The notes under the pieces were generated by a model. That model searched no databases, was not told the DNA's origin, and was given only the letters and a program-made list of their open reading frames with translations. A stretch of 64,000 nt of DNA from Gammaproteobacteria bacterium Ga0077554 (lineage in GTDB: Bacteria; Pseudomonadota; Gammaproteobacteria; Ga0077554; Ga007554). Positions 13,970-39,710 of this stretch are shown piece after piece. Each line of letters starts with the position of its first letter. Within the stretch, counting starts at the first letter, position 1. The stretch is from NCBI GenBank assembly GCA_001464585.1, contig LNFF01000009.1, positions 1-64,000 on the forward strand. The letters are read 5' to 3'. A program made the position numbers and the translations under genes.

Positions 13970-14022
13970 GGGTGTTTGGCTGGTGGCTGGTTCCGCATTG
14001 CTCTGAATCTGGAGGATTCATC

Positions 14023-17875: not shown

Positions 17876-17957
17876 GGGTTGATGATGGGTTTAACCTGTT
17901 TGTAACACTGTCATGTGAAAATCCTTTCCTTAATTCCAAATAAGTGCAGAAACGAAA

Positions 17958-18115: not shown

Positions 18116-19789
18116 ATGAAGCAGATTTTTTGTGCGGTGTTGTACTCCGGGTTTTTTGCCAAATTGATGGTAATGGGTGTGGTAATGGCACAGGAACCCG
18201 TGACGACACAAAAACAAGACGCTCAGGAACAAGGTGTCGCGCAACAAGATGAAGATGTTACTGCGACCGATACCGCGCCCACATCGGCAGTGGTATTCGA
18301 TGTGATGGAATACCGGGTAGAGGGCAATAGCGTGTTGCCAGTCATTACCATCGAACGCGTGTTATATCCACATCTAGGCCATGGCAAGAACATCGAAGAT
18401 GTGGAAAAGGCGCGTGCCGACCTGGAGCGTAGCTACCGCGATGCGGGATATCCCACCGTGCTGGTGGATATTCCCGAGCAGGACGTGAGCGCCAGTATGG
18501 TGCGCTTGCGTGTCACGGAAGGCCGGGTAGACAAGGTTCGCGTGACAGGCGCGCGCTATTATTCACAAGGCAGGATACTGGAAAAATTTCCTTCACTGAC
18601 GCAGGGCGGTGTGTTGTATTTGCCGGATGTGCAAAAGGGGCTGGCGGAAGTTAATCGCAGTGCGGGCCGCCGCGTCACGCCCATCCTGCGGCCTGGCAAA
18701 ACCCCCGGCACAGTGGAAATTGATTTCCGGGTAGACGACACCTTGCCGCTGCATGCGGCGCTGGAACTGAATAACCGTTACAGCGCCAATACCAGCCAGT
18801 TACGTTTGAGTGGCATGGTACGTTACGACAACTTGTGGCAGAAAGAACATGGCTTAACCTTGCAGTATCAGGCCTCACCGGAAAATACCGATGAAGTGAG
18901 CGTGTTTTCGGTATCTTATTTGCTGCCAGTGCCGAATTCTACCAACATGCTGGCGCTGTATGCGGTGCGTTCGCGCAGTGATGTGGCGGCGGTGGGTGAT
19001 ATTCAAGTGTTGGGTGACGGCGATATCTATGGCGCGCGTGCCATTGTTCCCCTGCCGCAGCAGGGCCCCTATTTTCATTCGCTGTCATTGGGGGTGGATT
19101 ACAAAGATTTTAAAGAGACGGTGGTGTTGCGCGGTGCGGACACCACGATTAACACGCCCATCAGTTATTTGCCGTTTTCCGTGCAGTATAACGCCACCTT
19201 GCAAGGTGCGCGCGGCGTGACACAAGCGGATGTGGGTGTGAATTTTTCGTTACGCGGCGTGGCGGATGAGACAGTAGATTGTTTCGGTCAGCGAGTCAAT
19301 GAATTTGAGTGCAAACGCTTTAAGGCGCGCGCCAGCTATGTGTATCTCAAAAGCAGTTTGCAGCGCGTGCAACGCTTGCCCTGGGATTTGAGTGTGGTGG
19401 GTCGCGTCGGTGGGCAATTAACGGATCAACCGCTGATCAGTAACGAGCAGATGGGCGCAGGCGGCGTTGATAGTGTGCGTGGTTATCTGGAGTTCGAACG
19501 CACGGGAGACTATGGTCTGTATGGCAGTCTGGAATTGCGCCGCGCTTTTACTGTTCAGAATTTTGAGGATGTGAATTTATTCGGGTTTGTTGAGGGCGCA
19601 AAGCTGCGTGTCATGGAAGCTTTGCCGGGGCAGACGTCACGCTTTGATTTATCCAGCACCGGTGTCGGCGCACGCATAAAGTGGCGTGATGTGAGTGCAA
19701 CATTGAATGTGGCGATGCCGTTTGAAGAAACGTCATACACCCCGGCGAGTGAAGTACGTACGCATTTCAAGTTGGCGTATGAGTTTTAG
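18116..19789 (+). CDS. Two-partner secretion outer-membrane transporter (TpsB, ShlB/FhaC family)
   Basis: An outer-membrane beta-barrel of the Omp85/TpsB family that exports the adjacent TpsA. The 557-residue product has an N-terminal export signal, a Gln/Asp-rich linker, and POTRA domains (about residues 60-210: YRVEGNSVLPVITIERVLYP, VRLRVTEGRVDKVRVTGARY). A 16-strand-type barrel follows, with the conserved VRGY motif in GGVDSVRGYLEFE. The barrel ends in a terminal Phe (LAYEF), as usual for outer-membrane insertion. tpsA follows after 280 bases of repeats on the same strand. Confidence 0.93.
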   Translation: MKQIFCAVLYSGFFAKLMVMGVVMAQEPVTTQKQDAQEQGVAQQDEDVTATDTAPTSAVVFDVMEYRVEGNSVLPVITIERVLYPHLGHGKNIEDVEKARADLERSYRDAGYPTVLVDIPEQDVSASMVRLRVTEGRVDKVRVTGARYYSQGRILEKFPSLTQGGVLYLPDVQKGLAEVNRSAGRRVTPILRPGKTPGTVEIDFRVDDTLPLHAALELNNRYSANTSQLRLSGMVRYDNLWQKEHGLTLQYQASPENTDEVSVFSVSYLLPVPNSTNMLALYAVRSRSDVAAVGDIQVLGDGDIYGARAIVPLPQQGPYFHSLSLGVDYKDFKETVVLRGADTTINTPISYLPFSVQYNATLQGARGVTQADVGVNFSLRGVADETVDCFGQRVNEFECKRFKARASYVYLKSSLQRVQRLPWDLSVVGRVGGQLTDQPLISNEQMGAGGVDSVRGYLEFERTGDYGLYGSLELRRAFTVQNFEDVNLFGFVEGAKLRVMEALPGQTSRFDLSSTGVGARIKWRDVSATLNVAMPFEETSYTPASEVRTHFKLAYEF

Positions 19790-19807
19790 GGAGTTTCTGG
19801 CTAAGTT

Positions 19808-19883
19808 GTCATTTCGGGCGTAGAGAGAAACAAGGATTTCTCCCGTTGGTCGAAATGACATGGCTGATTGGTCGAAATGACAT
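19808..19883. repeat. Short type A repeat with partial tandem copy
   Basis: GTCATTTCG at 19808 to CGAAATGAC at 19859 forms a 52-base short version of the family. The last about 22 bases (TTGGTCGAAATGACATG) are then repeated almost immediately to 19883. Confidence 0.75.
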
Positions 19884-19900
19884 GCCTGAATTTTTTATCA

Positions 19901-20005
19901 ATGTAGGGTGGGTTGCAAACCCACCAAGTGTTGCGTAACAACACAACGCCTTATCTAATGAGTGCCTGATGGCACATCGGATGGGTTACAACCTGCCCCC
20001 TACAT
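19901..20005. repeat. Second repeat type between tpsB and tpsA
   Basis: The ends ATGTAGGG (19901-19908) and CCCTACAT (19998-20005) are inverted. Inside are GGGTGGGTTGCAAACCCACC and a distant GGGTTACAACCTGCCC. This is unlike the GTCATT family. With the preceding repeat it fills the tpsB-tpsA gap. Confidence 0.65.
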
Positions 20006-20069
20006 TTATTTGTTCCCCCTCCCGCGCGCGGGCGAAGGGAGTCAATAATGTATTTTCGGAGTATCACAC

Positions 20070-23000
20070 ATGAATGCAAATTTATTCCGGTTGGTTTTTA
20101 GCGTCTCACGCGGAATGTGGGTTCCCGTATGGGAAGGCGCACGTGCATGTAGTGCAGGTGGTCGTGGCGAGGCGCGTCGAAAAACCAAACATGCTGTATT
20201 GCAGGTGGGCGCCGGAACATTGTTATTAATGGTATCTGCGGCTCACGCCGAGTTGCCCGTGGCGTGTGGCGGGGCGTGTGGCGTGAATGGCAATCTGTCA
20301 TGGCTCAGCAATGGCAGCGCACAGATTTTGCCGACGGAAGTCACGGCTACCGGCAGCCGGTTGCCAATTTTTCAAGAAAGCCAGCGCGCCATACTTAACT
20401 GGCAAAGTTTTAATATTGGTGCGGGGAACGAAGTCGAGTTTCGGCAGCAATTTGGCGCTGATGCGGCAGTGCTTAATCGCATCCATCAGGGCAGCGCAAG
20501 TGAAATTTTAGGGAGCTTGAAGGCCAATGGCCAGGTTTATCTGATCAATCAGAATGGCATTATTTTTGGTAATGGCGCGCAGGTTAATGTCGGGTCATTG
20601 ACCGCGTCTACACTAACGATTCCTGGTCTTGATAATGCCGATGCGTCGGATAACTGGTTTATCAACGGTATATTTTCACGTCCAGACAACACGGTTTCGC
20701 ATTTTGAAGGTAGCGCCAGCGGTGATGTGATTATTGCGGCGGGGGCAACGCTAGAGTCTGCCAAAGGTGGCAGAATCATGATTCTGGCGCCGAACATTGA
20801 TAACCAGGGCCGCATTATCACGCCGGATGGCCAGGCGCTGCTGGCGGCGGGTGACAAAATTTACTTGCAGAGCAAGAGCGATCCTGCTTTGCGTGGTTTG
20901 CTGGTGGAAATAATGGGTACGGGCGGCACGGTTACCAATGGCGGCGAGATCAGCGCGCCGCGCGGCAATGTTACATTGATGGGATTTGCCGTCAATCAGC
21001 AAGGCCGGGTCTCGGCTACGACCTCGGTGAACGCCAATGGCTCGATCAGATTACTGGCTCGGGATAATGCCAGCGTGTCTAGCCCGGGAGGATCAGATAT
21101 TTCAGATATTAGAGTATTTCCCACGCGTGCTGGTAGTGTGACCTTAGGGGAGGGCAGTATCACCGAAGTACGGCCAGACGTGGCTGACGCCACGACGAGC
21201 GTGGATCAACAAAAGTTCAATCGCTCGCGGATTGAAGTGATGGGTGAGACCATTACACTGGCCGCCAACAGCCGTATCGTTGCGCCCAGTGGTGAAGTGA
21301 CATTAAGCGCGGGTTTAGGTACAGCGGCACCGGGAGTAAAAGGCACGGGTACGATTGTGCTGGACGCTGGCAGTGTTATTGATGTTGCTGGCCTTACTGA
21401 TGTGGCGCTGTCGATGGAGCACAATTTGCTGGAAGTGGAGTTGCGCGGTGAGCAGCTCAGGGATTCACCCTTGCAGCGTGACGGTATCCTGCGCGGTGAA
21501 AAAGTCATTATTGATATTCGCAAGGGAACGCCGCTGGCAGATGTGTCGGGTTATATCGATGGCGTCGGCAAGACGGTGAGCGAAAGAAGTGTTATGGGGG
21601 GCGATGTAACGCTGGTTTCAACTGGGGATATCATCATGCGCGAGAACGCTGTAGCGGATGTGTCCGGTGGGCAGATTACTTACGCGGATGGTTATCTGAA
21701 TACCACCCAGTTAATTTCCGAGGGGCGCGTGTATGACATCAGCGAGGCCTCACCAGACCGTATTTATGAAAGCTTCACTGACTTTACCAAAGAGCACCGC
21801 AAGTGGGGCGTCACGGAAAGCTGGGGTTTATTGGGTGGCAGTAATCCGCGCGGCCAGTTCGCGGCGGGTTATGTCGAAGGTATGTCCGCCGGTACCCTGA
21901 AATTTATTGCCCCCGGCCTGGTGCTGGACGGCACATTGCGTGGTGGCGTGACACCTGGCGTGCATCAGCGTGAAGCAACAACGCTGCCCAGTGCGGGTAC
22001 TTTGATTATAGGAGATGCGGCGCAGGCATCGCAACAAACCCCTGATTTCCGTACGTCGGATGTGATATTACAGGCATCACGGACAGCCATCGGAGGTGAT
22101 TCGGTGGGTGATCATCAGCCGTTGGTGATGTCTACCGAATTTTTACAACAGGGCGGATTCGGCCAGGCGCGCATCTATAGCAACGGGCGCATTTCCGTGC
22201 CGTCTGGAGTGGTGCTTACTGCTCCGGCGGGGGGTGAGATCACCCTGGTGGGTCGTGAGGTGGATGTGCAAGGTGGCATGAATGCACCTGCTGGCACTCT
22301 GAAGTTGCAAGCAACGAGCACCATTGGCAATCCTGAGCCAGGGAATGTTACTCTGGGTGAGGGTGCATCACTTTTGACGCGTGGTCTATGGGTGAATGAC
22401 CGGCCTGAGATTGCGGGGGATCGAGTTCCCAGCGTGGCATTGATTGATGGCGGTTCAATTTCTCTCGCGGCGCAGGGTGATGTGATATTGGGTGCAGGCA
22501 GCATGATTGATGTGTCTGGTGGCGCCTGGTTGTCAGCCAGTGGTAATTTTAAATCCGGCAAGGGTGGGGATATTGCACTGAGTGCGGTGGAGAATGTTCA
22601 TTTGGGTGGCGAACTGCAAGCCTATGCTTTGACGAATGGCGCGTTGGTTGGAAGGGGTGGCACACTTACGCTGCGTACCCAGGAAATCAATATCCAGCCC
22701 GAACCAAATGTCGAATTTAATCTTACATCTGATCCCACATTTAATCAGGACACACTGAATACCCTAACACTCACCCCGGACTTTTTTCAGAGCGGGGGCT
22801 TCAGCAAATACAACCTTACCGGCACCACCGGTGTGACGATTACCGCCGACACCCAACTCTGGCCACAGGCAAAAAATCGGTTGTTGCAGCGTGATTACGC
22901 CTTGCAACCCAGCGGTTCGAATATAGACGATTTCAGCCCTGTCATAGTGTTGCCCCAGGATCAGCGTACCCCGGTGAACCTGACTCTACAATCCTCGCAA

Positions 23001-26000
23001 AGGCCAGTCATAGGCCAAACGCCCGGCAAAACGGGCGATTTGTTGCTGGATACGGGTGCCGCGATTCATGCTGATCCGGGTGGGCAGGTGACATTATCAT
23101 CCATGGGTAATCTCACCGTGCTGGGGATGATTGATGCGCCCGGGGGTAGTATTGATTTGAAGATTCAACAGTCCAACCCCCAAAACAATGGATTCATATC
23201 CAGCCAGGCCATCTGGCTGGGGCCACACAGTCAGTTGCTCAGCAGAGGGTTTGTGCAATTGCAGGAAAATGACCGGGGCCAGCAACATGGGCAGGTGTTG
23301 CGCGGTGGAACGGTGCAGATCGACGCTCAGCGAGGTTATGTGGTGAGCGCCGCAGGATCCCTGATTGATGTGTCGGGTGTGGCGGCAGATCTGGATTTGC
23401 CGACTGACAGCACTAACACAGTTTCCCATGCCACACGCGTCGCGGGCGATGCGGGGCGTGTGGTGCTCAAGGCGCGTGAAGGCATGTTACTGGACGGTGA
23501 TTGGTTGGCGCATGCGGGTGATGGGGAGGGAGCAGCAGGAGGTACGCTGGAAGTAGCGTTAAATCGTCCCTTCCCTTTCGAAATTATTGACAGCATTGAT
23601 CAACCCCCCGTTCCTGCTGCGCCCCTGCAAATCGTGATCAGCAGTGATGACGGTGCTGGACGTTCCCCGGAAGTGGGGCTGGGTGCGTCCCTTCCTGACG
23701 AGACGAATGGCAAGGCGCTGCTCAGCAGCGCCAAAATACAGTACGCCGGTTTTGATAAAGCTATCTTCAAAAGCCGCGATGAAATTCAGTTTCAAGGCGA
23801 TGTCTCACTCAACTTTAAGCGATCCCTCACGTTGGATGCCCCCGCCATCACTGCGGCAGAGGGCGCGCATGCCACACTGAATACAGCGTATTTCGCACTG
23901 GGCACAAGCACGCCGTCGATGGTAACCCCGCCACTGAGTGGCGATGGCATATTGGATGTGCAGGCCAAGTGGATAGACGTGATGGGTAATAGTGTTTTGC
24001 AGGGCTTCAAGACAGTTAATCTTTCCAGCAGTGGTGACATGCGTCTGCGTGGCACGGAGGGGGCGCCCGGATCTTTGTCTACTGCCGCTGATCTTACGCT
24101 CAAAGCCAACCAGATCTACCCGACTACCTTGAGTCAATTTATCCTGGAGGTTGGCAATAACGACCAGGGCACCCTAACTGTAGACGCGGGCAATGGCGCC
24201 ACCCCGGTGCTTTCCGCTGGCGGCAAGCTTACCCTGCGCGCGCCCAATATTGTGCAACGTGGCGTGCTTAAAGCACCCTTTGGTGAAATTGAGCTGGATG
24301 CTGCTGATACGCTGATACTTGATGCAGGCAGCATCACCTCCACTTCTGCAGAGGGTCAAATTATTCCATTTGGCGTCACGCTCCTGGGGGGAAGGGACTG
24401 GGTTTACAATGTGAACGGAAGTACCACACAGGTGATTGACACGCCGCCGGAGCGGCGCATTCGCCTCACGGGCACGCACATAAATGTGCGTGAGGACGCT
24501 ACCCTGGATCTTTCCGGAGGCGGTGATTTATATGCCACGGAATTTGTGCCTGGCCCCGGCGGGTCGAAAGACGTGCTGGACGCCAGCAATGCCACTAATA
24601 CCTATGCCATTGTGCCGGGTTTGAGTGCAGAGTTTGCGCCGTATGACAACGCCCTCTATCAAGGCTCAAACTTCCAGCCGGGTGACAGCGTGTACCTGTC
24701 GGGTAGCGAAGGCCTGCCCGCAGGAGTATACGCCTTGTTGCCAGCACGGTATGCCCTGTTACCGGGTGCATTTCTGGTGACGCCACGCGCAGGTTCGCAA
24801 GATATGCTACCGGGGCAATCCAAGGCATTGCTCAATGGCGCACCCGTAGTGGCGGGGTATCGTACTGTGGCGGGCACGGATATCCGTGATGCGCGCTGGT
24901 CTGGTTTCGTGGTGCGGCCAGGTGGCAGCGCCCGGCAGGAGTCTGAATTCAAGGAAAGTTACGCCAGCACCTTTTTCGCTGAACAGGCGAATGCCCAGTT
25001 GACCGGCGATGCCGGACGGTTGTCGATTAATGCCAGCCAATCGTTACTGCTGGAGGGGACGCTGCTGGCGAATCATGCGGCCAGTGCGCGCGGCGCAGAG
25101 GTGGATATCACCGCATCGAAAATGGCGATAGTTTCGCGCCGCAGTGGCACCACTGGGGACGAAGCCAATGGCGTTGTGCAACTGGACGTAGCCGCTTTGA
25201 ATAATCTGGGTGCGGCCAGCTTGCTGCTGGGTGGCACCCGCCAAAATACTAAAGAAGGTGTCGAAATCCGGGTTGGTGCTGATGAAGTGATGGTGCAGAA
25301 TGATCAGGATAATTCCCTGACCGCACCCGAAATTATCCTGGTGGCAAAGGATACGCTAACCGTGGAGTCAGGCAGTGTGATTGAAGGCAAAGGCACCTTC
25401 ACTGGTAAAAGCAAGGATCTCATCATTGGCCGAACTGATGATGCAGCCACCCTTGACGTGGATGAAAAAATTGTCGGGGACGGCGCCCTGTTACGCGTCT
25501 CTGCTGGCGCGCAATCTGATATCACACGCTTTAACGTAGAGCGTACCCGTGGCGTTCTGGATGTGGAAGCAGGCGCAGTGTTGCGTGCGGATGCGTCAGT
25601 GGCGCTGGATGCCACACTGGACACCCGTTCCCCGGGTAACATTGAAATGGTGAACGGCGCGCTCAGCCTCGGTGCAAGCCGCATCAGCCTCGGTGAAACT
25701 GCCACGGTGGTGGATGGGTTGGTGTTGTCCAATACGGCGCTTGCCGCACTCACCGGCTTGGCGCGTCTGGATTTGAGAAGTTACAGTTCGGTGGATTTAT
25801 ACGGTGATGTGGTACTCGGCAGCGTGGATACCCAGACTGGCCAGCCGCAACTTACCACGTTGTCTATTGAAGCTGCTGAATTGACAGGTTACCAGAATAC
25901 CGGCAAAACGGCAGTGATCACAGCAGGCAATTTCACTTTTTCGAATCCCGGTAAAGTAGTATCCAGTAATGTTGCGGATGGTAGCGGCAACCTGGTGATT

Positions 26001-29000: not shown

Positions 29001-30122
29001 GTTGAAACGATTGGCAATGCCGCTAACCCCGCCTTGGCAGAGCGTGGTGCGGATGTTGCGGTGATGGCAGGTGTAGGCGCCGCACTGGATTATGCATCAG
29101 TGCTCAATAAATATCTGGCGAGTTATGACTACCGGAACGAGCTGGCGATGTTTATCAGGGATCGTGAACATGACGCGAATCTGACCCGCGATCAGGCGTT
29201 GGCGATCTTTGCCAGTGAAACAGCGGCGGATCAGGCAGATATCCTGGCATCTGTTAAACAGGATTTTACACAGCTTGATGCGTATTCTCAGGCGAGTTTG
29301 CTGTTCTTCAATGAGCTGCGTGAGACCGGGCGTAAAGTCACGGCCTCTGGCGGTGATTACCAACGTGGTTTTGACGCCATTGCCACACTGTTTCCCGCCA
29401 GTAATTATCAGGGAGACATCAGCCTTTACCTCAGCCAGATAAAAACCACCAAGGGCGGCAATATTGATCTGTGGGCGCCGGGTGGTCAGGTAAATGCGGG
29501 GCTGGCGATACCGGACAAAGACCCTAACCAGTTGGGCATTGTGGCGGTGAACGAGGGTAGTGTACGCGCGTTCACCCGTGATGATTTCATTGTCAACGCA
29601 TCGCGGGTGTTTGCCATGCGCGGCGGGGATATTCTGATGTGGTCATCACAGGGAGATATTGATGCAGGCAAAGGAAAAAAGACGGCTTTGGTGATACCGC
29701 CACCCACCATTTCGGTGGATAGCCAGGGTAATGTGAAAACCGATTTTGGCAATGTTGCAGTGGGCAGTGGTATTCGCGCGCTGACGATTGACGGCATCGC
29801 GGCAGGTGATGTGGATCTGATTGCTCCCACTGGTGAAGTCAATGCCGGAGATGCCGGCATCGGAGCGGCGGGTAATCTCAACATCGCCGCATTGCGGGTC
29901 GTGGGCGCCGATAATATCCAGGTGGGTGGCATATCAACGGGCGTGCCAGTGGCGGATACTGGGGGCTTGGGTGGTAGCCTTAGTGGTGTCAGTAATTTGG
30001 GTGGCGAGAGTAAAGTGGCCGACCAGGTAACGCAGGACATGACTAACCAGGCAACTAGTTCCCTCAAGGATACTTTCAAGCCCTCTTTCCTGACGGTGGA
30101 GGTGATTGGTCATGGTGATTAG
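20070..30122 (+). CDS. Giant filamentous-haemagglutinin-type exoprotein (TpsA, DUF3739 type)
   Basis: A 3350-residue secreted beta-helical protein. Residues 1-60 form an extended signal peptide (MNANLFRLVFSVSRG..., cleavage after AAHA). A TPS recognition domain follows, with INQNGIIFGNGAQVNVGSL near residue 160. Thousands of residues of beta-helix-forming G/N/D/V/T repeats come next (GDVT, AGGxITL, LDASG-like turns). A DTDNDGVDDD stretch at residues 2330-2339 resembles a calcium-binding type 3 repeat. Near the C-terminus, YQRGFDAIATLFPASNYQGD, LSQIKTTKGGNIDLWAPGGQ and VNAGLAIP resemble the DUF3739 family of haemagglutinin-like proteins. There is no recognisable CDI toxin tip. GGAG precedes the start by 8 bases. 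Its exporter is the preceding TpsB; the exb/tonB genes downstream suggest linked energised steps. Confidence 0.93.
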   Translation: MNANLFRLVFSVSRGMWVPVWEGARACSAGGRGEARRKTKHAVLQVGAGTLLLMVSAAHAELPVACGGACGVNGNLSWLSNGSAQILPTEVTATGSRLPIFQESQRAILNWQSFNIGAGNEVEFRQQFGADAAVLNRIHQGSASEILGSLKANGQVYLINQNGIIFGNGAQVNVGSLTASTLTIPGLDNADASDNWFINGIFSRPDNTVSHFEGSASGDVIIAAGATLESAKGGRIMILAPNIDNQGRIITPDGQALLAAGDKIYLQSKSDPALRGLLVEIMGTGGTVTNGGEISAPRGNVTLMGFAVNQQGRVSATTSVNANGSIRLLARDNASVSSPGGSDISDIRVFPTRAGSVTLGEGSITEVRPDVADATTSVDQQKFNRSRIEVMGETITLAANSRIVAPSGEVTLSAGLGTAAPGVKGTGTIVLDAGSVIDVAGLTDVALSMEHNLLEVELRGEQLRDSPLQRDGILRGEKVIIDIRKGTPLADVSGYIDGVGKTVSERSVMGGDVTLVSTGDIIMRENAVADVSGGQITYADGYLNTTQLISEGRVYDISEASPDRIYESFTDFTKEHRKWGVTESWGLLGGSNPRGQFAAGYVEGMSAGTLKFIAPGLVLDGTLRGGVTPGVHQREATTLPSAGTLIIGDAAQASQQTPDFRTSDVILQASRTAIGGDSVGDHQPLVMSTEFLQQGGFGQARIYSNGRISVPSGVVLTAPAGGEITLVGREVDVQGGMNAPAGTLKLQATSTIGNPEPGNVTLGEGASLLTRGLWVNDRPEIAGDRVPSVALIDGGSISLAAQGDVILGAGSMIDVSGGAWLSASGNFKSGKGGDIALSAVENVHLGGELQAYALTNGALVGRGGTLTLRTQEINIQPEPNVEFNLTSDPTFNQDTLNTLTLTPDFFQSGGFSKYNLTGTTGVTITADTQLWPQAKNRLLQRDYALQPSGSNIDDFSPVIVLPQDQRTPVNLTLQSSQRPVIGQTPGKTGDLLLDTGAAIHADPGGQVTLSSMGNLTVLGMIDAPGGSIDLKIQQSNPQNNGFISSQAIWLGPHSQLLSRGFVQLQENDRGQQHGQVLRGGTVQIDAQRGYVVSAAGSLIDVSGVAADLDLPTDSTNTVSHATRVAGDAGRVVLKAREGMLLDGDWLAHAGDGEGAAGGTLEVALNRPFPFEIIDSIDQPPVPAAPLQIVISSDDGAGRSPEVGLGASLPDETNGKALLSSAKIQYAGFDKAIFKSRDEIQFQGDVSLNFKRSLTLDAPAITAAEGAHATLNTAYFALGTSTPSMVTPPLSGDGILDVQAKWIDVMGNSVLQGFKTVNLSSSGDMRLRGTEGAPGSLSTAADLTLKANQIYPTTLSQFILEVGNNDQGTLTVDAGNGATPVLSAGGKLTLRAPNIVQRGVLKAPFGEIELDAADTLILDAGSITSTSAEGQIIPFGVTLLGGRDWVYNVNGSTTQVIDTPPERRIRLTGTHINVREDATLDLSGGGDLYATEFVPGPGGSKDVLDASNATNTYAIVPGLSAEFAPYDNALYQGSNFQPGDSVYLSGSEGLPAGVYALLPARYALLPGAFLVTPRAGSQDMLPGQSKALLNGAPVVAGYRTVAGTDIRDARWSGFVVRPGGSARQESEFKESYASTFFAEQANAQLTGDAGRLSINASQSLLLEGTLLANHAASARGAEVDITASKMAIVSRRSGTTGDEANGVVQLDVAALNNLGAASLLLGGTRQNTKEGVEIRVGADEVMVQNDQDNSLTAPEIILVAKDTLTVESGSVIEGKGTFTGKSKDLIIGRTDDAATLDVDEKIVGDGALLRVSAGAQSDITRFNVERTRGVLDVEAGAVLRADASVALDATLDTRSPGNIEMVNGALSLGASRISLGETATVVDGLVLSNTALAALTGLARLDLRSYSSVDLYGDVVLGSVDTQTGQPQLTTLSIEAAELTGYQNTGKTAVITAGNFTFSNPGKVVSSNVADGSGNLVIAAKDVVLGDQREDQTNKAINGFNAVKVIADKEITFQGQGQMKVAGDLDLVSSRLTGGIGADQSIDATGQVNITPSAHAVTLPAVATLGAHLNITGKRILHAGNIELPSGILTLAANGVDAGDAVTLVSGSQTNMQGTAKTFGDVVAYAPGGRVTLASASGNVDVQSGALINVSGAAAGGDAGTLAVHAAQGTALIAGNVMGSAAAQSRSGSVTLDTGTLADFSALNNVLNAGGFGESRSVRVRHGDINVAGTDTLTAQHLKLVADGGKIDIQGTLDASANKDGTIGLYAKQNVTLNPGAKLDAHTTGNGEQGGKVTLATTDGEITLDTLSEINVSGGENGKGGSVLLRAPRIDTDNDGVDDDVAIAAVAGAITGASSVVVEGVKAYNASRISALGATVAGANFNASTTGVDATVFNDTQNFITNNKANIVARLGNAALRVRPGIDIYNNGDLELADEWDMSMWRFDGEPGTLTLRAQGDLKLTKSLSDGFDGATATANLQGGESWSYQLVAGADTASADTLALLPQAQLAGNKGNVKLANNALVRTGTGDIDIAAGANIELGNAQSVIYTAGTPVAALAGFTAPPASAGQAAGYASDGGNITLTAQGDVKGAITKQFINEWLFRQAGTNSSWWLRFDQFQQNIGALGGGNITVTAGRDVINLSAVIPTTGRVAGAVQEARVLDIQGGGDLSVTAGRNIQSGVYYVGRGHGDLHADGAITGRAVSSQAILHPVLALGDGDFRVTANGDVNLETAVNPTILPRSKLQGGLKSFFFTYDPASAINLVSLSGDTVIHNNNNKAVTLNIDLRPSGAEEAVLNIYPGTFTAQALQGNILLKESMVLAPAPQGNFELLAAGDVVLEKDARVIVSDADTAVLPGPIQPQTNFIIINNNLGAGATTAHAAVPIHKLDDVPIRIIAETGSIIGNNAQLVFPKQARFQAGQDIQDLRLEGQNVRAADVTRLQAGRDIVYTTDSNSSRIILAGSGRLEMQAGRNVELGAAYGVETIGNAANPALAERGADVAVMAGVGAALDYASVLNKYLASYDYRNELAMFIRDREHDANLTRDQALAIFASETAADQADILASVKQDFTQLDAYSQASLLFFNELRETGRKVTASGGDYQRGFDAIATLFPASNYQGDISLYLSQIKTTKGGNIDLWAPGGQVNAGLAIPDKDPNQLGIVAVNEGSVRAFTRDDFIVNASRVFAMRGGDILMWSSQGDIDAGKGKKTALVIPPPTISVDSQGNVKTDFGNVAVGSGIRALTIDGIAAGDVDLIAPTGEVNAGDAGIGAAGNLNIAALRVVGADNIQVGGISTGVPVADTGGLGGSLSGVSNLGGESKVADQVTQDMTNQATSSLKDTFKPSFLTVEVIGHGD

Positions 30123-30126
30123 TTTC

Positions 30127-30303
30127 AACCCGGAAAATCCAATAGGCATTTTATCGTGAATTGTCGATCAAAACCAAGATCCCTCCCCACGCTTTCGCGA
30201 GGGTCGGGATGACAGCTCCCTGTCATTTCGAACGTAGCGAGAAATCCTTGTCTTGATGAATATGGGGGATCTTCCAAGATTCCTCACATGCGTTCGGAAT
30301 GAC
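30127..30303 (+). repeat. Right inverted repeat framing tpsB-tpsA
   Basis: It begins AACCCGGAAAATCCAATAGG only 4 bases after the tpsA stop. Its first 59 bases are an inverted copy of 18034-18092 (54 of 59 identical). It continues with type A repeat sequence (GTCATTTCGAACG..., AGAAATCCTTGTC) and ends GGAATGAC at 30303. It fills much of the 385-base gap to the ExbB-fusion gene. Confidence 0.85.
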
Positions 30304-30507
30304 AGGTGTTTTGTTTTCAGGATAATGCGGAAGCGCGCATACCCTCCGACTGATCCACTGATGCGTTCTTTCTGGCTTATCAAGAACCCCACCATAACAA
30401 TTCTGTAACATTTGACAGGCAAAATACACCATCACCTAAAATCATGTGTGCATGCCGTGGCGAGCCGCATATGTTTTTTTAAAGTTAACAGGCAAATTAA
30501 ACAAGTC

Positions 30508-32307
30508 ATGAAATTGCAATCCAATAAAAAAATAGCACATATTTTTCTCCTGTTTGCCAGTTTAATCTCCCTGTTTCCCAATATGGCGCATGCCTGGTGG
30601 AGTGATGACTGGGCATACCGTAAAAAGATTATCCTCAATACCACCGCAAGTGGCTCAGACATCAAAACCGACCTGGCATCCGTGCCAGTGCTGGTGCGCC
30701 TGCACACCGGTAACTTTGATTTTTTAAGTGCGAAAGATGATGGCGCGGATCTGCGTTTTGTCAGTGGTGACGACACCACCCCACTGAAATACCATATTGA
30801 AAAATACGATGCATTGAATGAGCTCGCAGTTATCTGGGTGCAGGTGCCGAAGCTGACCGCAGCATCTGATGCCAACATTGTCTGGCTGTATTATGGCAAT
30901 GATTCCGCAAGTGCCGGTGATGACCCCAAGGGCAGCTACGATGTGAATCAGGTGGCTGTATATCATTTTGGCGAGCCAGGCGCTCCCAAAGATTACACAG
31001 CCTATGCCAATAATGCGACACCGTCTGATGCTGTAAGCCAAGCTGCGGCGTCATTGATTGGCCCGGGAGCAACCTTTGCCGAGACAAATGCTATTACTAT
31101 TCCCGCCACTCCTTCCCTCTCCTTTAATACAGAAGGAGGATTCACTTTTTCTGCATGGATAAAGATCACCGCCCCGCAGAAAAATGCCCTGCTTTTCTCA
31201 CAGAATGATGGTACCTCCCCTCTGGTGATTGGCATCGATCAAACCAGGGTTTATGCCGGTACTCCAGGTAAAGAGGCGCGCCCCAGTGCCGAATTGACGC
31301 TCAATACATGGCATCATTTAGCAGTCACTGCTGGCAAGCGACTGGTGATTTATATTGATGGTGTTGAAGCGGCGGCGGCAGATGTTGCCTTGCCGATGCT
31401 GATCAGTAATATCACGCTAGGCGCGTCATACAACGGCGAAATGGATGAGGCGCAGATTTCAAATATTGCGCGTTCGGCTGACTGGATAAAAACCGCAGCA
31501 CGTGGTGAAGGTGTAGATGCGAAACTGATTACGTACGATGTCGATGAACAGAATGAAGGCGGCGGCACTTCTTATTTTACCACCACTATGCAGTCTGTCA
31601 CCTTTGATGGTTGGGTGGTGATCGTTATCTGTATGGCCATGGCCGCTGTGAGCTGGGTTGTGATGGTGAACAAGGCGGTTGTCATCGGCAGGGCGGCAAA
31701 AGATAACGAAAAATTTCTCGCTTCGTTTCAGAAGCTGGCCACTGATCCAGGGATGTTGGATCACGATGATGATCAGGATGATCTGGCGAATAAAAAAAGC
31801 CCGTTCGCTGCAGCATTGTTTGGCGCCCATGACCATTATCAAAGCTCGCCGATTTATCGCATTTATCATGTCGGTATCCAGGAGGTCAAGAACCGTTTTG
31901 GTAAAACCGATCCCAAACAGATCGGCAAGATGCTCACCCCGCAGAGCATCGGCGCGATCCGCGCCAGTCTTGATGCTGCGATGGTGAGAGAAAATCAGAA
32001 ACTCACCAGCCAGATGGTATTGCTTACCATCGCCATCAGTGGTGGCCCTTTCCTTGGTTTGCTCGGTACCGTGGTAGGGGTGATGATAACTTTTGCGGCG
32101 ATTGCCGCCAGTGGTGATGTTAATGTCAACGCCATTGCTCCTGGTATTGCGGCGGCGCTGGTCGCCACGGTGGCGGGGCTGGTGGTGGCGATACCGGCGC
32201 TGTTTGGCTACAACTATCTGCTTAGCAAGATCAAGAACATCACGGCAGATATGCAGGTATTTGTAGACGAATTTGTACATAAAGTTGCTGAGAATTACGG
32301 AACATAA
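30508..32307 (+). CDS. DUF2341-LamG-ExbB/TolQ fusion protein
   Basis: A 599-residue membrane protein starting at the ATG at 30508. A signal peptide (residues 1-29, ends NMAHA) is followed by a DUF2341 domain (WWSDDWAYRKKIILN, then VPVLVRLHTGNFDF). A LamG/concanavalin-like domain (about residues 150-350, with GGFTFSAWIKI and NTWHHLAVTAGKRLVIYIDG) comes next. The C-terminal third is a MotA/TolQ/ExbB proton channel with three membrane spans near 369-392, 504-535 and 541-573 (SGGPFLGLLGTVVGVMITF, AALVATVAGLVVAIPAL). Ordinary ExbB lacks the long exported N-terminus, so this places a carbohydrate- or protein-binding module in the periplasm on the channel. ExbD follows after 12 bases. Confidence 0.9.
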   Translation: MKLQSNKKIAHIFLLFASLISLFPNMAHAWWSDDWAYRKKIILNTTASGSDIKTDLASVPVLVRLHTGNFDFLSAKDDGADLRFVSGDDTTPLKYHIEKYDALNELAVIWVQVPKLTAASDANIVWLYYGNDSASAGDDPKGSYDVNQVAVYHFGEPGAPKDYTAYANNATPSDAVSQAAASLIGPGATFAETNAITIPATPSLSFNTEGGFTFSAWIKITAPQKNALLFSQNDGTSPLVIGIDQTRVYAGTPGKEARPSAELTLNTWHHLAVTAGKRLVIYIDGVEAAAADVALPMLISNITLGASYNGEMDEAQISNIARSADWIKTAARGEGVDAKLITYDVDEQNEGGGTSYFTTTMQSVTFDGWVVIVICMAMAAVSWVVMVNKAVVIGRAAKDNEKFLASFQKLATDPGMLDHDDDQDDLANKKSPFAAALFGAHDHYQSSPIYRIYHVGIQEVKNRFGKTDPKQIGKMLTPQSIGAIRASLDAAMVRENQKLTSQMVLLTIAISGGPFLGLLGTVVGVMITFAAIAASGDVNVNAIAPGIAAALVATVAGLVVAIPALFGYNYLLSKIKNITADMQVFVDEFVHKVAENYGT

Positions 32308-32319
32308 AAGGTAACCCCA

Positions 32320-32721
32320 ATGCAGGTACAGGATGACAAGCTTTACGATGATATCAATGTCACGCCAATGCTGGATCTGGCGTATGTGTTGCTGGTGATC
32401 TTTATTATCATGACTACCGCTTCAGTACAGGGTATTAAAGTTAATCTACCCAAGGCCAGCGCTGCGCCGAGTCTGGCAAAGCCAACTACCAAAGCGATCA
32501 CCATTACGGATGCTGGGCAAATATTTCTCGATACTTATCCAGTAACAATGTCTGAACTGGAATCGCAATTGCGCAGCCATAAGGCAGTGAATCCCAATTT
32601 CCCGGTAGTGATCAAGGGTGACGCCAAGGTTCAGTATGAAAAAGTGATTGAGGTATTGGATCTGATGGGCAAGCTGGATATTACCCAACTGGGTTTGGTT
32701 ACGCAGAAAATAGTCAAGTAG
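32320..32721 (+). CDS. exbD: ExbD/TolR-type proton channel partner
   Basis: A 133-residue inner-membrane protein with a short cytoplasmic N-terminus, one membrane span with the conserved Asp (VTPMLDLAYVLLVIFIIMTT), and a periplasmic C-terminal domain (KAITITDAGQIFLD, VVIKGDAKVQYEKVIEVLDL). It works with the adjacent ExbB fusion to convert proton flow into movement of a TonB-like protein. It lies 12 bases after the ExbB-fusion gene. A 222-base gap, mostly composite repeat, separates it from the TonB-like gene. Confidence 0.93.
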   Translation: MQVQDDKLYDDINVTPMLDLAYVLLVIFIIMTTASVQGIKVNLPKASAAPSLAKPTTKAITITDAGQIFLDTYPVTMSELESQLRSHKAVNPNFPVVIKGDAKVQYEKVIEVLDLMGKLDITQLGLVTQKIVK

Positions 32722-32740
32722 TAACGTGATGTCACGCCAG

Positions 32741-32932
32741 AATAAAAATCCCCGCAGCAAGCGGCGGGGTATTTCTCTGTCATTCCGAGCACCGCGAGGA
32801 ATCCTTGTCTCGAACGAATGTGAGAGATCTTGCAAGATCCCTCACTGCGCCGGAAATGATAGGGGTGATGACAATAAACGCACCAAGCTGCGGGGAGAGC
32901 GTAGCGAGGGGTCTAAACCCAAAGAGATTGAA
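32741..32932 (-). repeat. Composite repeat, long form, between exbD and tonB
   Basis: Read on the minus strand it has the same three modules as 10943-11095: TTCAATCTCTTTGGGTTT..., a type A core (TTGTCATC... to GGAATGAC), and the CCCCGCCGCTTGCTGCGGGG hairpin followed by ATTTTTATT. Its terminator module faces leftwards, so it should not stop rightward transcription strongly. Its right end lies 11 bases before the TonB-like gene. Confidence 0.85.
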
Positions 32933-32943
32933 TTTGGAATGCA

Positions 32944-33627
32944 ATGGTGAACGTCGACAAACAGTTCCTGTTTCGCTGGGGGCCGAGGTTTATGGTCGCG
33001 GCATTCCTGCTTATCTTCATGGGTGTGGCGATCTTTCTTTTGAAAGATATTATCTTCGGTGATAAATCTTCAAAGAAACGCGTGATTCATGAAATCGCCT
33101 TGATAAAACCCCCGCCACCACCCAAGCCGGAAGAGAAACCGCCGGAGCCGGAGATCAAGAAGGAAGAAGTGAAACTGCCGGAACCGGAAGCTCCTCCACC
33201 GGAACAACCTGAAAATGCCTCTGAAGATGAGCCTGCTTCTGAAAATTTGGGCCTGGATGCAGACGGTCAGGCTGGATCAGATAGTTTCGGGTTAGGCGCG
33301 AACAAGGGAGGCAGGGCGATCATCGCCGGAAAGAGCAGTGGCGGTGGCAATCGTTTCGCCTGGTATGACGGGTTGGTGCAAAAGACCATTCAGGACGTTT
33401 TGGACAGAAGCAAGGATCTGGATAAACAAAACTACAAAGTGATTGTAAAAATATGGTTGAACCCGGACGGAAGCGTAGAGCGTTTTGATCTTGCCAATTC
33501 CAGTGGCAATCCTGATGTGGACAAATCCATAAAAATTGCTTTGAGTGAAGTAAGGCGGGTGGGAGAGCCCCTTCCTGACGGATTAGCGCAACCGATTAAA
33601 TTACGCATCACCTCGCGTCAGTTGTAA
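32944..33627 (+). CDS. TonB-like energy transducer
   Basis: A 227-residue protein with the TonB plan: one N-terminal membrane span (about residues 16-38, FMVAAFLLIFMGVAIFLL), a Pro/Glu/Lys-rich periplasmic spacer (IKPPPPPKPEEKPPEPE and onward, to about residue 90), and a Gly-rich stretch. The C-terminal TonB-fold domain contains YKVIVKIWLNPDGSVERFDL, SGNPDVDKSIKIAL and LAQPIKLRITSRQL. It probably carries energy from the ExbB fusion/ExbD across the periplasm. The outer-membrane partner is not certain; no TonB-dependent receptor with a plug is adjacent. Confidence 0.9.
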   Translation: MVNVDKQFLFRWGPRFMVAAFLLIFMGVAIFLLKDIIFGDKSSKKRVIHEIALIKPPPPPKPEEKPPEPEIKKEEVKLPEPEAPPPEQPENASEDEPASENLGLDADGQAGSDSFGLGANKGGRAIIAGKSSGGGNRFAWYDGLVQKTIQDVLDRSKDLDKQNYKVIVKIWLNPDGSVERFDLANSSGNPDVDKSIKIALSEVRRVGEPLPDGLAQPIKLRITSRQL

Positions 33628-33660
33628 TTGAGTGTTATATACATTAAAAGAGTCTTGAAA

Positions 33661-35241
33661 ATGACAAATAAAAAACTGCGCACCCTCGGTTTGGGTTTAT
33701 CTCTCATGTTGGCTAATTCAGCCACCTTCGCTGATGATAAAGAAGACCTTGAAAAATTGCGTACCACCACCCAGAGTTTAATTCAGATTTTGGTGGAGCA
33801 GGGCGCCATTACTCCAGAAAAAGCCCAGGCGTTGATGGATGAGATCGGAAGTGGTGCGAGAGATACGCAAACTTTGCAACAAGAGCCTGCCCTGACACAG
33901 CCAGAGCAGGAACCGGATAAAAAGAGTGTGCGCGTGCCGTATGTTCCGGAAATAATCAAGCAGGAAATGACTGAGGAAATCAGGCAGGATGTGCTGGCGC
34001 AGGCAAAGCGGGAAAGCTGGGGAAAACCGGGTTCAGTACCCGAATGGGCGCATAAAATCAGATGGGAAGGCGACTTCCGGTTTCGTTATCAAAGCGATCA
34101 ATTTCAGGACGACAATACACCTTTTACACCCAATTTCCTGGAAATCAATCGGGCGGGTGACGTTACCCAGACTGCCAATCCTTTTATAAATGCTACTGAA
34201 GACCGCCAGCGTTTACGGTTGCGCGCAAGATTAAGCATGCTTGCCGAAGTAACCCAGGGTATCAGCGCCGCTTTTCGTCTGACGACCGGCGGCTCCAATG
34301 ATCCCGTGTCTACCAATCAAACCTTGGGTAACTCAGGAAATCGTTTTAATTTTTCCCTGGATCAGGCCTATTTGAAGTTTGACCCCTATTCGTGGTTGAC
34401 AGTGGTAGCAGGAAAGACGCCCAATCCCTGGTTTGCTACTGACCTGGTATGGGATGAAGACCTGAATTTTGATGGTGTTGCCGTGCAATTAAAGCCCCGC
34501 CTGGCTAATGATCTGATATGGTTTTCGACACTGGGCGCGTTTCCATTACAAGAGATTGAGCTATCAAAAGATGATAAATGGTTGTATGGCGCGCAAACCG
34601 GAGTGGACTGGCATCGCAGTGAGTTCCGGGCGCGTTTTGGTGTCGCCTATTATGATTATCAAAATATCACCGGGCGAAGAAATACACTGAACAGTCATTT
34701 GCTGGATTTTACTGCGCCGCAGTTCATGCAGAAGGGCAACACTGTATTTAATATTTCGCAGGACGCCGCAAAGCCGGATTTGTATGCACTGGCTGCGGAA
34801 TATAAAGAGCTGGCGGTTACCGCCCATATGGATGTTTATGTTTTTGCGCCCGTGTATGTGATGTTGACTGCCGATTACGTCAAAAATCTTGGTTTTGATA
34901 AAGACGAAATCCAGCGGCGTACCGGGCTGAACATTGAAGAAAAAAACCAGGATCAAGCCTGGTTGGGCAGAATAGCGGTAGGTATGCCCAAGATCAAGCA
35001 TCGCCATGACTGGCAAGTGTTCGCAGGTTATAAACATCTGGAAAGCAATGCTGTAGTGGATGCGTTTGCCGATTCCGATTTCCATCTGGGCGGCACCAAT
35101 GCCAAGGGCTGGATAGGGGGTGGTAGCTATGGCGTGGCTACCGATACATGGCTGACCCTGCGCTGGTTGAGCGCCGATGAGATTACCGGCCCGCCACTGG
35201 CGATTGATGTGTTACAGCTTGATTTGAATGTGAGATTTTAA
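33661..35241 (+). CDS. Putative outer-membrane porin
   Basis: A 526-residue exported protein from the ATG at 33661 (the in-frame start at 33628 would place extra residues before a clear signal peptide). The signal ends near SATFA. A short helical segment (EDLEKLRTTTQSLIQILVEQ, then GAITPEKAQALMDEI) precedes a long beta-barrel region rich in alternating aromatic strands, ending LDLNVRF with terminal Phe. This fits the 'putative porin' family with an N-terminal periplasmic helix. It lies 33 bases after the TonB-like gene, so it is a candidate outer-membrane partner of the system. Confidence 0.82.
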   Translation: MTNKKLRTLGLGLSLMLANSATFADDKEDLEKLRTTTQSLIQILVEQGAITPEKAQALMDEIGSGARDTQTLQQEPALTQPEQEPDKKSVRVPYVPEIIKQEMTEEIRQDVLAQAKRESWGKPGSVPEWAHKIRWEGDFRFRYQSDQFQDDNTPFTPNFLEINRAGDVTQTANPFINATEDRQRLRLRARLSMLAEVTQGISAAFRLTTGGSNDPVSTNQTLGNSGNRFNFSLDQAYLKFDPYSWLTVVAGKTPNPWFATDLVWDEDLNFDGVAVQLKPRLANDLIWFSTLGAFPLQEIELSKDDKWLYGAQTGVDWHRSEFRARFGVAYYDYQNITGRRNTLNSHLLDFTAPQFMQKGNTVFNISQDAAKPDLYALAAEYKELAVTAHMDVYVFAPVYVMLTADYVKNLGFDKDEIQRRTGLNIEEKNQDQAWLGRIAVGMPKIKHRHDWQVFAGYKHLESNAVVDAFADSDFHLGGTNAKGWIGGGSYGVATDTWLTLRWLSADEITGPPLAIDVLQLDLNVRF

Positions 35242-35259
35242 GCGTTGCTGACTGAAACG

Positions 35260-35967
35260 ATGAAACCATATTCCATGTTGCGTAATATAGGGTTGGTTAT
35301 GCTGATGTTATGCACCTTGGGCATGACAGGAAATGCCAGCGCCGCCGCAGATGATAAAAAAGAGCGTGATGCGCAGAGAAAGTTGCGTCTGATGATGCAA
35401 AATATGACACAGGAGAAAGCGGCGCTTGAAAGTGAAAAAAACAGCTTAAGCGAACAGGTAAAATCCCTAAATAAACAGATCACCGACCTCAAAAATAGTT
35501 CAGCAAGCGTATCCAGGAAAAAAGATGCGCGCGTGGGAGAGGTTGAAAAGGAGTTACTGGCGGTTAAAGAAGAGAACCTGAGTTTGGCCAGCAAGCTGCA
35601 AGCTGCGCAGAGCAGCCTGGAAGATTTGGCGGTCAAGTCCCGGGAATCTTTGCAGGGTTTGCAAAAGGATTTGCAAACCAGTGTTGATCAGGGTGATGCG
35701 TGTAAAAGCCAGCTTCAGGAGTCCGCGTCCAACGTATCCCGGCAATCGCAATTGATCGAAATGTGCGAAAAAAAGAACATGGTGTTGTATGAACTGAATG
35801 TTGAGATTCTTGACAGATATAAAAAGAAAGGAGCTTGGGACGCATTGTTACAAGCTGAACCTTTTACCCAGATAAGAAAGGTTGAAATCGAAAATATAAT
35901 ACAGGAATATAAGGAAAAACTTGAAAACCAAACAATGGAGAAAACCAGCTTGGATAATAAAAAATAA
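35260..35967 (+). CDS. Periplasmic coiled-coil protein
   Basis: A 235-residue exported protein. I start at the ATG at 35260 (MKPYSML) rather than the TTG at 35245. The signal peptide ends near NASA. The mature part is largely heptad-patterned coiled coil (QEKAALESEKNSLSEQVKSL, LAVKEENLSLASKLQAAQSS), then two Cys (DACKSQL, EMCEKKN) that could form a disulfide. No family recognised. It is the last gene of the TPS/Exb/TonB unit, 18 bases after the porin; by position it may be a periplasmic spacer or adaptor. Confidence 0.75.
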   Translation: MKPYSMLRNIGLVMLMLCTLGMTGNASAAADDKKERDAQRKLRLMMQNMTQEKAALESEKNSLSEQVKSLNKQITDLKNSSASVSRKKDARVGEVEKELLAVKEENLSLASKLQAAQSSLEDLAVKSRESLQGLQKDLQTSVDQGDACKSQLQESASNVSRQSQLIEMCEKKNMVLYELNVEILDRYKKKGAWDALLQAEPFTQIRKVEIENIIQEYKEKLENQTMEKTSLDNKK

Positions 35968-37347: not shown

Positions 37348-37367
37348 ATGCTGTGAAAATATAAGAA

Positions 37368-38150: not shown

Positions 38151-38154
38151 GTCG

Positions 38155-39704: not shown

Positions 39705-39710
39705 GTTGGC

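What the first reader, a model, noticed from the sequence alone, without database searches (positions are those of the whole stretch)
18116..35967. A two-partner secretion pair joined to its own ExbB/ExbD/TonB energy unit
The sequence shows one same-strand series: TpsB exporter, 3350-residue TpsA, exported DUF2341-LamG domain fused to an ExbB channel, ExbD, TonB-like protein, porin and a periplasmic coiled-coil protein. Classical two-partner secretion needs no energy source at the outer membrane. The gene order suggests that proton-motive force, transmitted through this dedicated unit, acts on the giant surface protein or on the porin: for example to retain, release, fold or pull it, or to import what it captures. 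I infer this from context; I know of such gene groupings but not of a worked-out function.
Basis: partly seen in the sequence, partly recalled or inferred. Interest (0 to 1): 0.85.

Follow-up and report, generated by a model that had tools for sequence, protein, structure and literature searches.

The report
Giant surface protein with private motor
A block of eight or nine genes makes a giant bacterial surface protein, its exporter, a private proton-driven motor of the Ton/Tol type and a companion pore; the block recurs in many bacteria, resembles a phosphate-starvation locus of Pseudomonas whose mechanism is unknown, and the giant protein ends in a conserved tail that the motor might hold.

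Summary
Window 18116-35967 holds TpsB, a 3350-residue TpsA (ESPR, TPS, DUF3739), an exported DUF2341-LamG domain fused to an ExbB/TolQ-type channel, ExbD, a TonB-like protein, a 16-stranded porin (Porin_5) and a coiled-coil protein.

The grouping is not chance. In 369 genomes of the class, DUF3739 occurs in 23 (over cut-off), near-full-length Porin_5 in the same 23 plus one, DUF2341 in 22 of the 23. Of 59 loci with enough sequence after TpsA, 54 carry ExbB fusion, ExbD and TonB; 50 carry all five genes. Eight of ten loci without the fusion nearby were checked; all 8 genomes have DUF2341 elsewhere.

The kind is known: the P. aeruginosa VreI/PhoB locus (pdtA, pdtB, exbB2, exbD2, tonB4, PA0696, PA0697), induced by phosphate starvation, mechanism unknown.

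New here: the near-strict coupling across families, and a conserved short C-terminal TpsA motif ([FV][LI][ST]V[ED]V[LI]G[FHY]G[DE]; 92 of 99 tails by pattern, 0 of 10 other TPS proteins) on a predicted-disordered tail. I infer a docking handle. That the motor acts on TpsA is plausible, not shown.

The parts
15178..16017 (+). PEP-CTERM exported protein, recurrent first gene of the block (optional member)
   Evidence: PEP-CTERM motif just under the Pfam cut-off (20.6 of 20.7 bits) and weak NCBIfam PEP-CTERM matches; blastp cluster over 6 genomes upstream of the block; a PEP-CTERM gene at the same place on the Aquabacterium plasmid (annotation)
16375..17739 (+). PstS-like periplasmic-binding-protein homologue with signal peptide (ORF from 16195; ATG after AGGAG at 16375); likened to DING/LapA-type secreted proteins by position
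   Evidence: PBP_like_2 weak in the window protein (0.0045, below cut-off), over cut-off in L058; family profile finds phosphate-binding proteins in PDB only weakly (best 8.5e-4); cluster over 18 genomes
17889..17906 (+). pho-box-like direct repeat (GTTTAAC-N4-TTGTAAC) about 210 bp before tpsB
   Evidence: block conserved in L063 and L074 of the same family (alignment); site model rests on a recalled consensus
18116..19789 (+). TpsB outer-membrane exporter (FhaC type)
   Evidence: POTRA_2, ShlB
20070..30122 (+). TpsA, 3350 aa: ESPR signal peptide, TPS domain, DUF3739, disordered tail
   Evidence: tail pLDDT below 50 from residue 277 of the 331 modelled
30081..30119 (+). C-terminal TpsA motif PSFLTVEVIGHGD, the last 13 residues
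   Evidence: pattern in 92 of 99 tails, about 3 of 99 shuffled, 0 of 10 non-DUF3739 TPS proteins
30508..32307 (+). signal peptide, DUF2341 + LamG (periplasmic, inferred), ExbB/TolQ-type channel
32320..32721 (+). ExbD/TolR-type protein with the conserved membrane Asp
32944..33627 (+). TonB/TolA-type protein: one hydrophobic N-terminal stretch, proline-rich stretch, TonB_2 C-terminal domain
33661..35241 (+). Porin_5: 16-stranded barrel with an N-terminal helical extension and conserved V-R-V-x-Y-x-P segment (ORF from 33628)
   Evidence: Pfam 5e-176; AlphaFold2 model pLDDT 78.8; conservation; nearest fold OmpM1
35260..35967 (+). exported coiled-coil protein, PA0697-like by place in the locus (ORF from 35245)
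   Evidence: in 50 of 59 loci; conserved C-terminal segment EPft..k.Ve.En

Best explanation
This is one secretion-and-surface unit in two halves: [PstS-like, TpsB, TpsA] and [ExbB fusion, ExbD, TonB-like, stalked porin, coiled coil]. TpsB exports TpsA in the ordinary way, without the motor (established for TPS in general). The last ~55 residues of TpsA are predicted disordered and end in a conserved strand-like motif. I infer that export stalls there, so that the motif stays in the periplasm and is gripped by the second half: either by the TonB-like C-terminal domain itself, as TonB grips a TonB box, or by the porin and coiled-coil assembly that TonB drives. Proton-motive force through the LamG-crowned channel and ExbD would then hold, tension or release the giant protein, under phosphate starvation. 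Shown: the gene unit, its coupling across genomes, the motif. Predicted: the folds. Inferred: every contact, the periplasmic place of the tail, the use of force. Split: the unit is functional 0.9; it acts on TpsA or its anchoring 0.4.
For: Near-strict joint presence of DUF3739, near-full-length Porin_5 and DUF2341. Conserved order. The second half stays together when it lies 14-20 kb from TpsA (G136, G249, G314; in G010 the ExbB-ExbD-TonB part is 23 kb off and the porin stands by TpsA), and TonB sits directly before the porin in 53 of 55 loci. C-terminal motif by pattern in 92 of 99 tails, 49 of the 92 within 3 residues of the end, in 3 of 5 further loci and, by eye, in the Methylosinus, Methylomagnum and Aquabacterium plasmid TpsA; absent from 10 other TPS proteins. 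The modelled tail is disordered. 85 of 100 TpsA sequences have no Cys in the last 250 residues, so a Cys hook (recalled for HMW1/CdrA) is not the rule. The ExbD Asp and the channel Thr are kept. P. aeruginosa PdtA and PA0696 are among the proteins most enriched under phosphate limitation (PMC9769906 passages).
Against: No contact was tested. TonB's nearest gene is the porin, not TpsA, which favours the porin as its target. TpsA keeps the motif also where the Exb half is not nearby (L098, L101, L104, L165). The channel's 'APGIAEAL' Glu is Ala in at least 90% of 83 family members, so motor function may be altered. The distance-correlation test of motif against TonB C-terminus (partial r 0.28, 45 loci) is not decisive: LamG (0.24) and, with one control fewer, the channel (0.37) do as well. 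PMC2729926 reports insertion mutants of tpsA, tpsB, tonB and PA0696 as virulent as wild type in zebrafish; PdtA is credited with a role in C. elegans virulence (Faure 2014 as cited), but no phenotype bears on the motor. Two of the five loci lack the pattern, both from outside the class. The pattern was written after seeing the tails.
Confidence: 0.4

Rival explanations
1. Energised uptake: the motor opens or drives the stalked porin, which imports a phosphorus compound that TpsA and the PstS-like protein capture or release outside; TpsA is a collector, not the load.
For: TonB-porin adjacency 53 of 55; conserved V-R-V-x-Y-x-P segment between stalk and barrel, a possible TonB contact; PstS-like gene in the block; pho-box-like sites enriched before block genes, 15 of 43 against 29 of 277; phoU near the porin on a Methylomagnum plasmid; PhoB control in P. 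aeruginosa (PMC4971064 passages).
Against: Modelled as a 16-strand barrel nearest to known porins, best OmpM1, and no TonB-receptor plug domain in Pfam; porins normally need no energy; the PstS-like protein matches phosphate-binding proteins only weakly; no substrate known.
Confidence: 0.3
2. Tol-like tether: the five-gene half is an envelope-bracing complex (channel and ExbD near TolQ/TolR, TolA-like C-terminus, stalked porin like the OmpM attachment porin) that steadies the outer membrane where a giant protein is exported; no force acts on TpsA.
For: tolQ and tolR profiles score above exbB and exbD; TolQ above ExbB among solved structures; OmpM1 is the best fold match; coiled-coil partner.
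Against: All these profile scores are below curated cut-offs; among solved structures ExbD scores above TolR; does not explain the TpsA tail motif; giant TPS proteins without the DUF3739 domain occur in the same genomes (frames up to 6172 codons), their neighbours not examined.
Confidence: 0.15
3. Co-regulation only: the genes sit together as one phosphate-starvation regulon but work separately.
For: P. aeruginosa keeps Hxc secretion, lapA, pdt and exb-tonB genes in one VreI regulon (PMC2729926, PMC7035377 passages).
Against: Near-full-length Porin_5 and DUF3739 occur in the same genomes of 369, with one contig-broken exception; order and pairing recur across families and on plasmids; the Hxc and Vre genes, also co-regulated, were not found among 47 window ORFs scanned with Pfam.
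Confidence: 0.15

Closest known systems
P. aeruginosa pdt / VreI (PUMA3) locus: pdtA, phdA, pdtB, exbB2, exbD2, tonB4, PA0696, PA0697 (PMC2729926, PMC4971064, PMC7035377)
   Same: TpsA and TpsB, ExbB, ExbD, TonB, porin and a further exported protein in one regulon; phosphate-starvation setting; the K. pneumoniae plasmid kin in the PA0693-PA0701 order carries DUF2341-LamG on ExbB.
   Different: No vreA-vreI-vreR, Hxc, YbjN or PpiC genes among 47 window ORFs scanned; a LysR gene exists at 2171-3112 but beside electron-transfer genes, 12 kb before the block; PstS-like gene and tpsB directly upstream of tpsA; PEP-CTERM neighbours. PAO1 proteins themselves were not obtained.
psp (DING) - pflu2428 pair of P. 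fluorescens SBW25 (PMC2225411)
   Same: PstS-related gene directly before a 4083-residue haemagglutinin gene; phosphate-limited expression (passages).
   Different: Flanked by Hxc secretion genes; 'exbB' does not occur in that paper.
Ton system (ExbB-ExbD-TonB with TonB-dependent receptor)
   Same: Channel, ExbD with membrane Asp, proline-rich TonB with C-terminal domain.
   Different: Fused exported DUF2341-LamG domain, Ala for the channel Glu, a porin instead of a plugged receptor.
Tol-Pal system
   Same: Channel and ExbD score nearest TolQ and TolR in NCBIfam.
   Different: No TolB or Pal in the block; below curated cut-offs.
OmpM1 attachment porin of Veillonella
   Same: Nearest solved fold: E 2e-16, TM 0.76 by target, 0.47 by query; both with an N-terminal helical part (OmpM stalk recalled).
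   Different: 15% identity; no SLH domain in the Pfam scan of the window porin.
HxuC-HxuB-HxuA (TPS with TonB-dependent transporter; PMC5422565 passages)
   Same: A TPS protein that works with a Ton-driven outer-membrane step.
   Different: HxuC is a TonB-dependent transporter; the operon is described as three genes, without ExbB, ExbD, TonB or porin.

Membership tests
Two-partner secretion (type Vb) | TpsB with POTRA and ShlB barrel; TpsA with TPS domain | tested here: met
Two-partner secretion (type Vb) | TpsA crosses the outer membrane through TpsB | not testable with these tools
   needs a secretion assay
pdt/VreI-type TPS-Ton-porin locus | TpsA, TpsB, ExbB, ExbD, TonB, porin and a PA0697-like gene together | tested here: met
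   P. aeruginosa gene list from papers; PA0697 likeness by place only
pdt/VreI-type TPS-Ton-porin locus | VreA-VreI-VreR regulators at the locus | tested here: not met
   no STN, FecR or ECF sigma gene among 47 window ORFs; the set is on the Methylosinus plasmid, an STN gene in L243
pdt/VreI-type TPS-Ton-porin locus | PhoB control | tested here: inconclusive
   pho-box-like sites enriched at each of four thresholds tried (p 5e-5 to 0.01) and one footprint; recalled consensus; the best-scoring site before tpsB in the window overlaps a dispersed repeat
Ton system | ExbB, ExbD, TonB domains | tested here: met
Ton system | channel Glu of APGIAEAL (E176 in E. coli ExbB, number recalled) | tested here: not met
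   Ala in at least 90% of 83 members, aligned with the TolQ Glu
Ton system | ExbD membrane Asp | tested here: met
Ton system | curated ExbB/ExbD equivalog cut-offs | tested here: not met
   70.3 of 206.2 and 67.3 of 123.45 bits
Ton system | plugged TonB-dependent receptor as target | tested here: not met
   no such gene in the block; porin has only Porin_5 in Pfam
Tol-Pal system | TolQ, TolR over cut-off; TolB and Pal present | tested here: not met
   132.6 of 221 and 94.4 of 127.3 bits; no TolB or Pal in the block
PstS/DING phosphate-binding proteins | PBP fold with phosphate site | tested here: inconclusive
   weak PBP_like_2 and PDB matches, GSG[ST]QA-like motif in the alignment

The most novel reading that the evidence does not exclude
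The conserved C-terminal strand of DUF3739 TpsA proteins is a TonB-box-like handle: a dedicated proton-driven motor grips an exoprotein still threaded through its exporter and holds, pulls or releases it. Force from the inner membrane would thus act on a two-partner secretion protein, a class held to work without energy at the outer membrane.
Probability: 0.25. Interest if true: 0.88.

Novelty: new member of a known kind. Interest (0 to 1): 0.6.

Why it matters
Type V secretion is described as needing no energy source or gradient at the outer membrane (PMC5422565 passages); a later review says a direct link between proton-motive force and passenger translocation still needs to be established (PMC8151025 passages). 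A TPS family that travels with its own motor, porin and coiled coil across many proteobacterial families is a natural place to ask whether proton-motive force can act on a secreted protein. In P. aeruginosa PdtA and PA0696 are among the most phosphate-starvation-enriched proteins (PMC9769906), yet the energy unit of that locus has no known function. The tail motif gives one short, testable contact.

Tried and rejected

Cys hook as the general anchor: rejected as a rule, 85 of 100 tails have no Cys; L230 and L231, not of this family, do end with Cys.

Exosortase link: 21 of 23 DUF3739 genomes have exosortase against 127 of 369 in all, and EPS genes lie near some blocks, but exosortase itself is within about 25 kb of the block in only five of the 23 by my reading of the places (G010, G107, G119, G239, G318); kept as a lifestyle correlate, not as part of the machine.

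Genes inserted between TpsA and ExbB (gap of 500 bp or more in 23 of 67 loci): no single family in the blastp clusters, not pursued. Coevolution of the motif with TonB, porin or others by distance correlation: inconclusive. Fold search of the TpsA C-terminus: no match at E 0.001. DUF2341-ExbB-ExbD-TonB sets without TpsA (L083-L085): context only partly read.
Full report
What is there. TpsA has an extended signal peptide, a TPS domain and, near its end, DUF3739. The third gene is a three-part fusion: signal peptide, DUF2341 with LamG, then an ExbB/TolQ-type channel. Its likely start is ATG 30508, since the A-W-W and the next W right after the signal peptide are kept in at least 90% of 83 relatives. 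The porin gives Porin_5 over nearly its whole length at 5e-176.

The unit is larger than reported. A PstS-like gene directly upstream (16375-17739) belongs to one cluster over 18 genomes, and a PEP-CTERM gene before it to one over 6. On an Aquabacterium plasmid the same nine kinds of gene stand in the same order, with ExbD doubled (PstS-like and coiled coil by profile). Downstream the unit ends at the coiled coil; type VI secretion genes follow.

Is the grouping real? In 369 genomes drawn over the class, DUF3739 matches in 24, 23 of them over the cut-off, in 16 families by my count. DUF2341 matches in 30, 22 of them among the 23. Near-full-length Porin_5 (E below 1e-100) occurs in 24 genomes: all 23 plus G104, whose contig starts about 670 bases before its DUF2341 match. 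Weaker, partial Porin_5 matches (E above 1e-35) occur in other genomes too. Fisher p is 1e-35 for the porin and 9e-28 for DUF2341; relatedness makes these too small. On the DNA, the DUF3739 and DUF2341 matches lie within about 5.5 kb in 16 of the 23 and 14-23 kb apart in 4; in 2 they are on different contigs (in G101 the DUF2341 match is in a 1632-codon frame, so the fusion is not shown there); in 1 (G200, 64% complete) DUF2341 is missing. In G070, G101 and G200 the porin is on another contig than TpsA, so its place is not shown there. In a second sample, the 80 best of 405 DUF3739 relatives (L088 and L089 repeat loci of the first sample), 59 have at least 6.5 kb after TpsA: 54 have the ExbB fusion, ExbD and TonB, 51 the porin, 50 all five. 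Ten loci with at least 700 bases after TpsA lack the fusion; of these I checked eight, including the five misses among the 59, and all 8 genomes have DUF2341 elsewhere, in frames of 443-641 codons; whether these are ExbB fusions was not checked. In 398 genomes of the phylum DUF3739 occurs in 14, three of them outside the class.

What it resembles. Papers describe the same set in P. aeruginosa: a TPS pair, exbB2, exbD2, tonB4, PA0696 'putative outer membrane porin' and PA0697, under the sigma factor VreI and PhoB (PMC2729926 passages and part of the Discussion; PMC4971064 and PMC7035377 passages). PMC2729926 already notes that related clusters in six other genomes go with TPS, ExbBD and PA0696 homologues. 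PdtA and PA0696 are among the most enriched proteins under phosphate limitation (PMC9769906 passages). A K. pneumoniae plasmid has ExbB (DUF2341-LamG-channel), ExbD, TonB, porin, hypothetical, YbjN, peptidylprolyl isomerase, hypothetical and LysR, which fits PA0693-PA0701 as listed. A Methylosinus plasmid adds STN, sigma and FecR genes, the likely Vre set. P. fluorescens psp, a PstS relative, is followed by a gene for a 4083-residue haemagglutinin-type protein (PMC2225411 passages). So the kind is known, its mechanism is not: the 2020 paper calls the exb-tonB genes uncharacterized.

The motor. ExbD keeps the membrane Asp. The channel aligns without gaps to TolQ over the last helices, but the Glu of APGIAEAL is Ala. 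NCBIfam puts channel and ExbD nearer TolQ and TolR than ExbB and ExbD, all below cut-off; among solved structures the channel is nearer TolQ and ExbD nearer ExbD. It is a Ton/Tol-type unit of its own, not a plain Ton system. PMC12505986 (passages) lists DUF2341 among extra domains of unknown function on such channels.

The porin. An AlphaFold2 model (pLDDT 78.8) shows 16 strands after an N-terminal helical part; the best solved fold is the OmpM1 attachment porin. The segment VRVPYVPE before the third helix keeps V-R-V-x-Y-x-P in at least 90%. As near-full-length Porin_5 was not seen in the 369 genomes without DUF3739 (G104 apart), this segment could not be compared with independent members.

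The TpsA tail. In 99 tails, 92 fit a pattern around FLTVEVIGHGD, 49 of them within 3 residues of the end; shuffled tails give about 3 of 99. Of the seven misses five keep a variant such as WLEVFVIGLGE, one (L108) is degenerate and one (L077) has its variant further in. Ten TPS proteins without DUF3739 from the same genomes, of twelve matched, give 0 (one runs off its contig). Of five further loci three fit; the two that do not, L246 and L248, are from outside the class, where L245 fits. The model leaves residues 277-331 of the segment below pLDDT 50: a short conserved motif on a disordered tail, long enough to span the exporter if it stayed there (inference). The pattern was written after seeing the tails.

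How it may work. The motor's nearest gene partner is the porin (53 of 55); the tail motif offers TpsA a contact in the periplasm. I favour a motor that acts on TpsA or its anchoring (0.4) over energised uptake through the porin (0.3), a Tol-like brace (0.15) and mere co-regulation (0.15). The phosphate setting is supported by pho-box-like sites before block genes: 15 of 43 against 29 of 277 other open frames at score 13 (the control frames are mechanical ORFs, and the 43 hold related loci). The window's own highest-scoring site before tpsB overlaps a dispersed repeat; a second site at 17889-17906 is conserved in two relatives.

In print. No paper in the held library holds DUF3739, PF12545 or PF16930; six hold DUF2341, none about TPS by title. 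Listings for TPS with ExbB/TonB (20 of 735 seen), tonB4/exbB2/PdtA (10 of 10), haemagglutinin with ExbB and putative porin (4 of 4) and TPS with proton-motive force and retention (5 of 5) gave the Pseudomonas papers, reviews and unrelated work; I saw no mechanism for this unit there. Subscription papers, among them Faure 2013 and 2014, were not seen.

Noticed in passing
window 9111, 17984, 19835, 30221, 50974, 51037, 61896: A 26-base element (GATTTCTC..TCGAAATGACA) occurs 7 times in the window against none in 100 shuffles, three times in the gaps between block genes: a dispersed repeat, REP- or MITE-like.
   Followed up: partly
window 11394-14973: Sugar transferase, LuxR-type regulator and a trypsin-like PEP-CTERM protein before the block; exosortase and EPS genes lie near the block in several relatives.
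   Followed up: partly
L083, L084, L085: DUF2341-ExbB, ExbD and TonB sets without TpsA or porin next to them; in L085 a secretin gene lies about 4 kb before.
   Followed up: partly
L218 (NZ_CP065459.1), L220 (NZ_AP022333.1), L222 (NZ_CP029211.1): Whole or near-whole blocks on plasmids of Klebsiella, Methylosinus and Aquabacterium, so the unit may move.
   Followed up: partly
L219 (NZ_AP019784.1): On the Methylomagnum plasmid the porin stands by cax and phoU; no ExbB or TonB is annotated in the stretch shown.
   Followed up: no
window 36292-42923: Type VI secretion genes (ImpA_N, OmpA/BON, TagF, IcmF; IcmF_C in a separate frame at 39138-39704) directly after the block, then a D-alanyl-D-alanine carboxypeptidase and flagellar and chemotaxis genes.
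   Followed up: no
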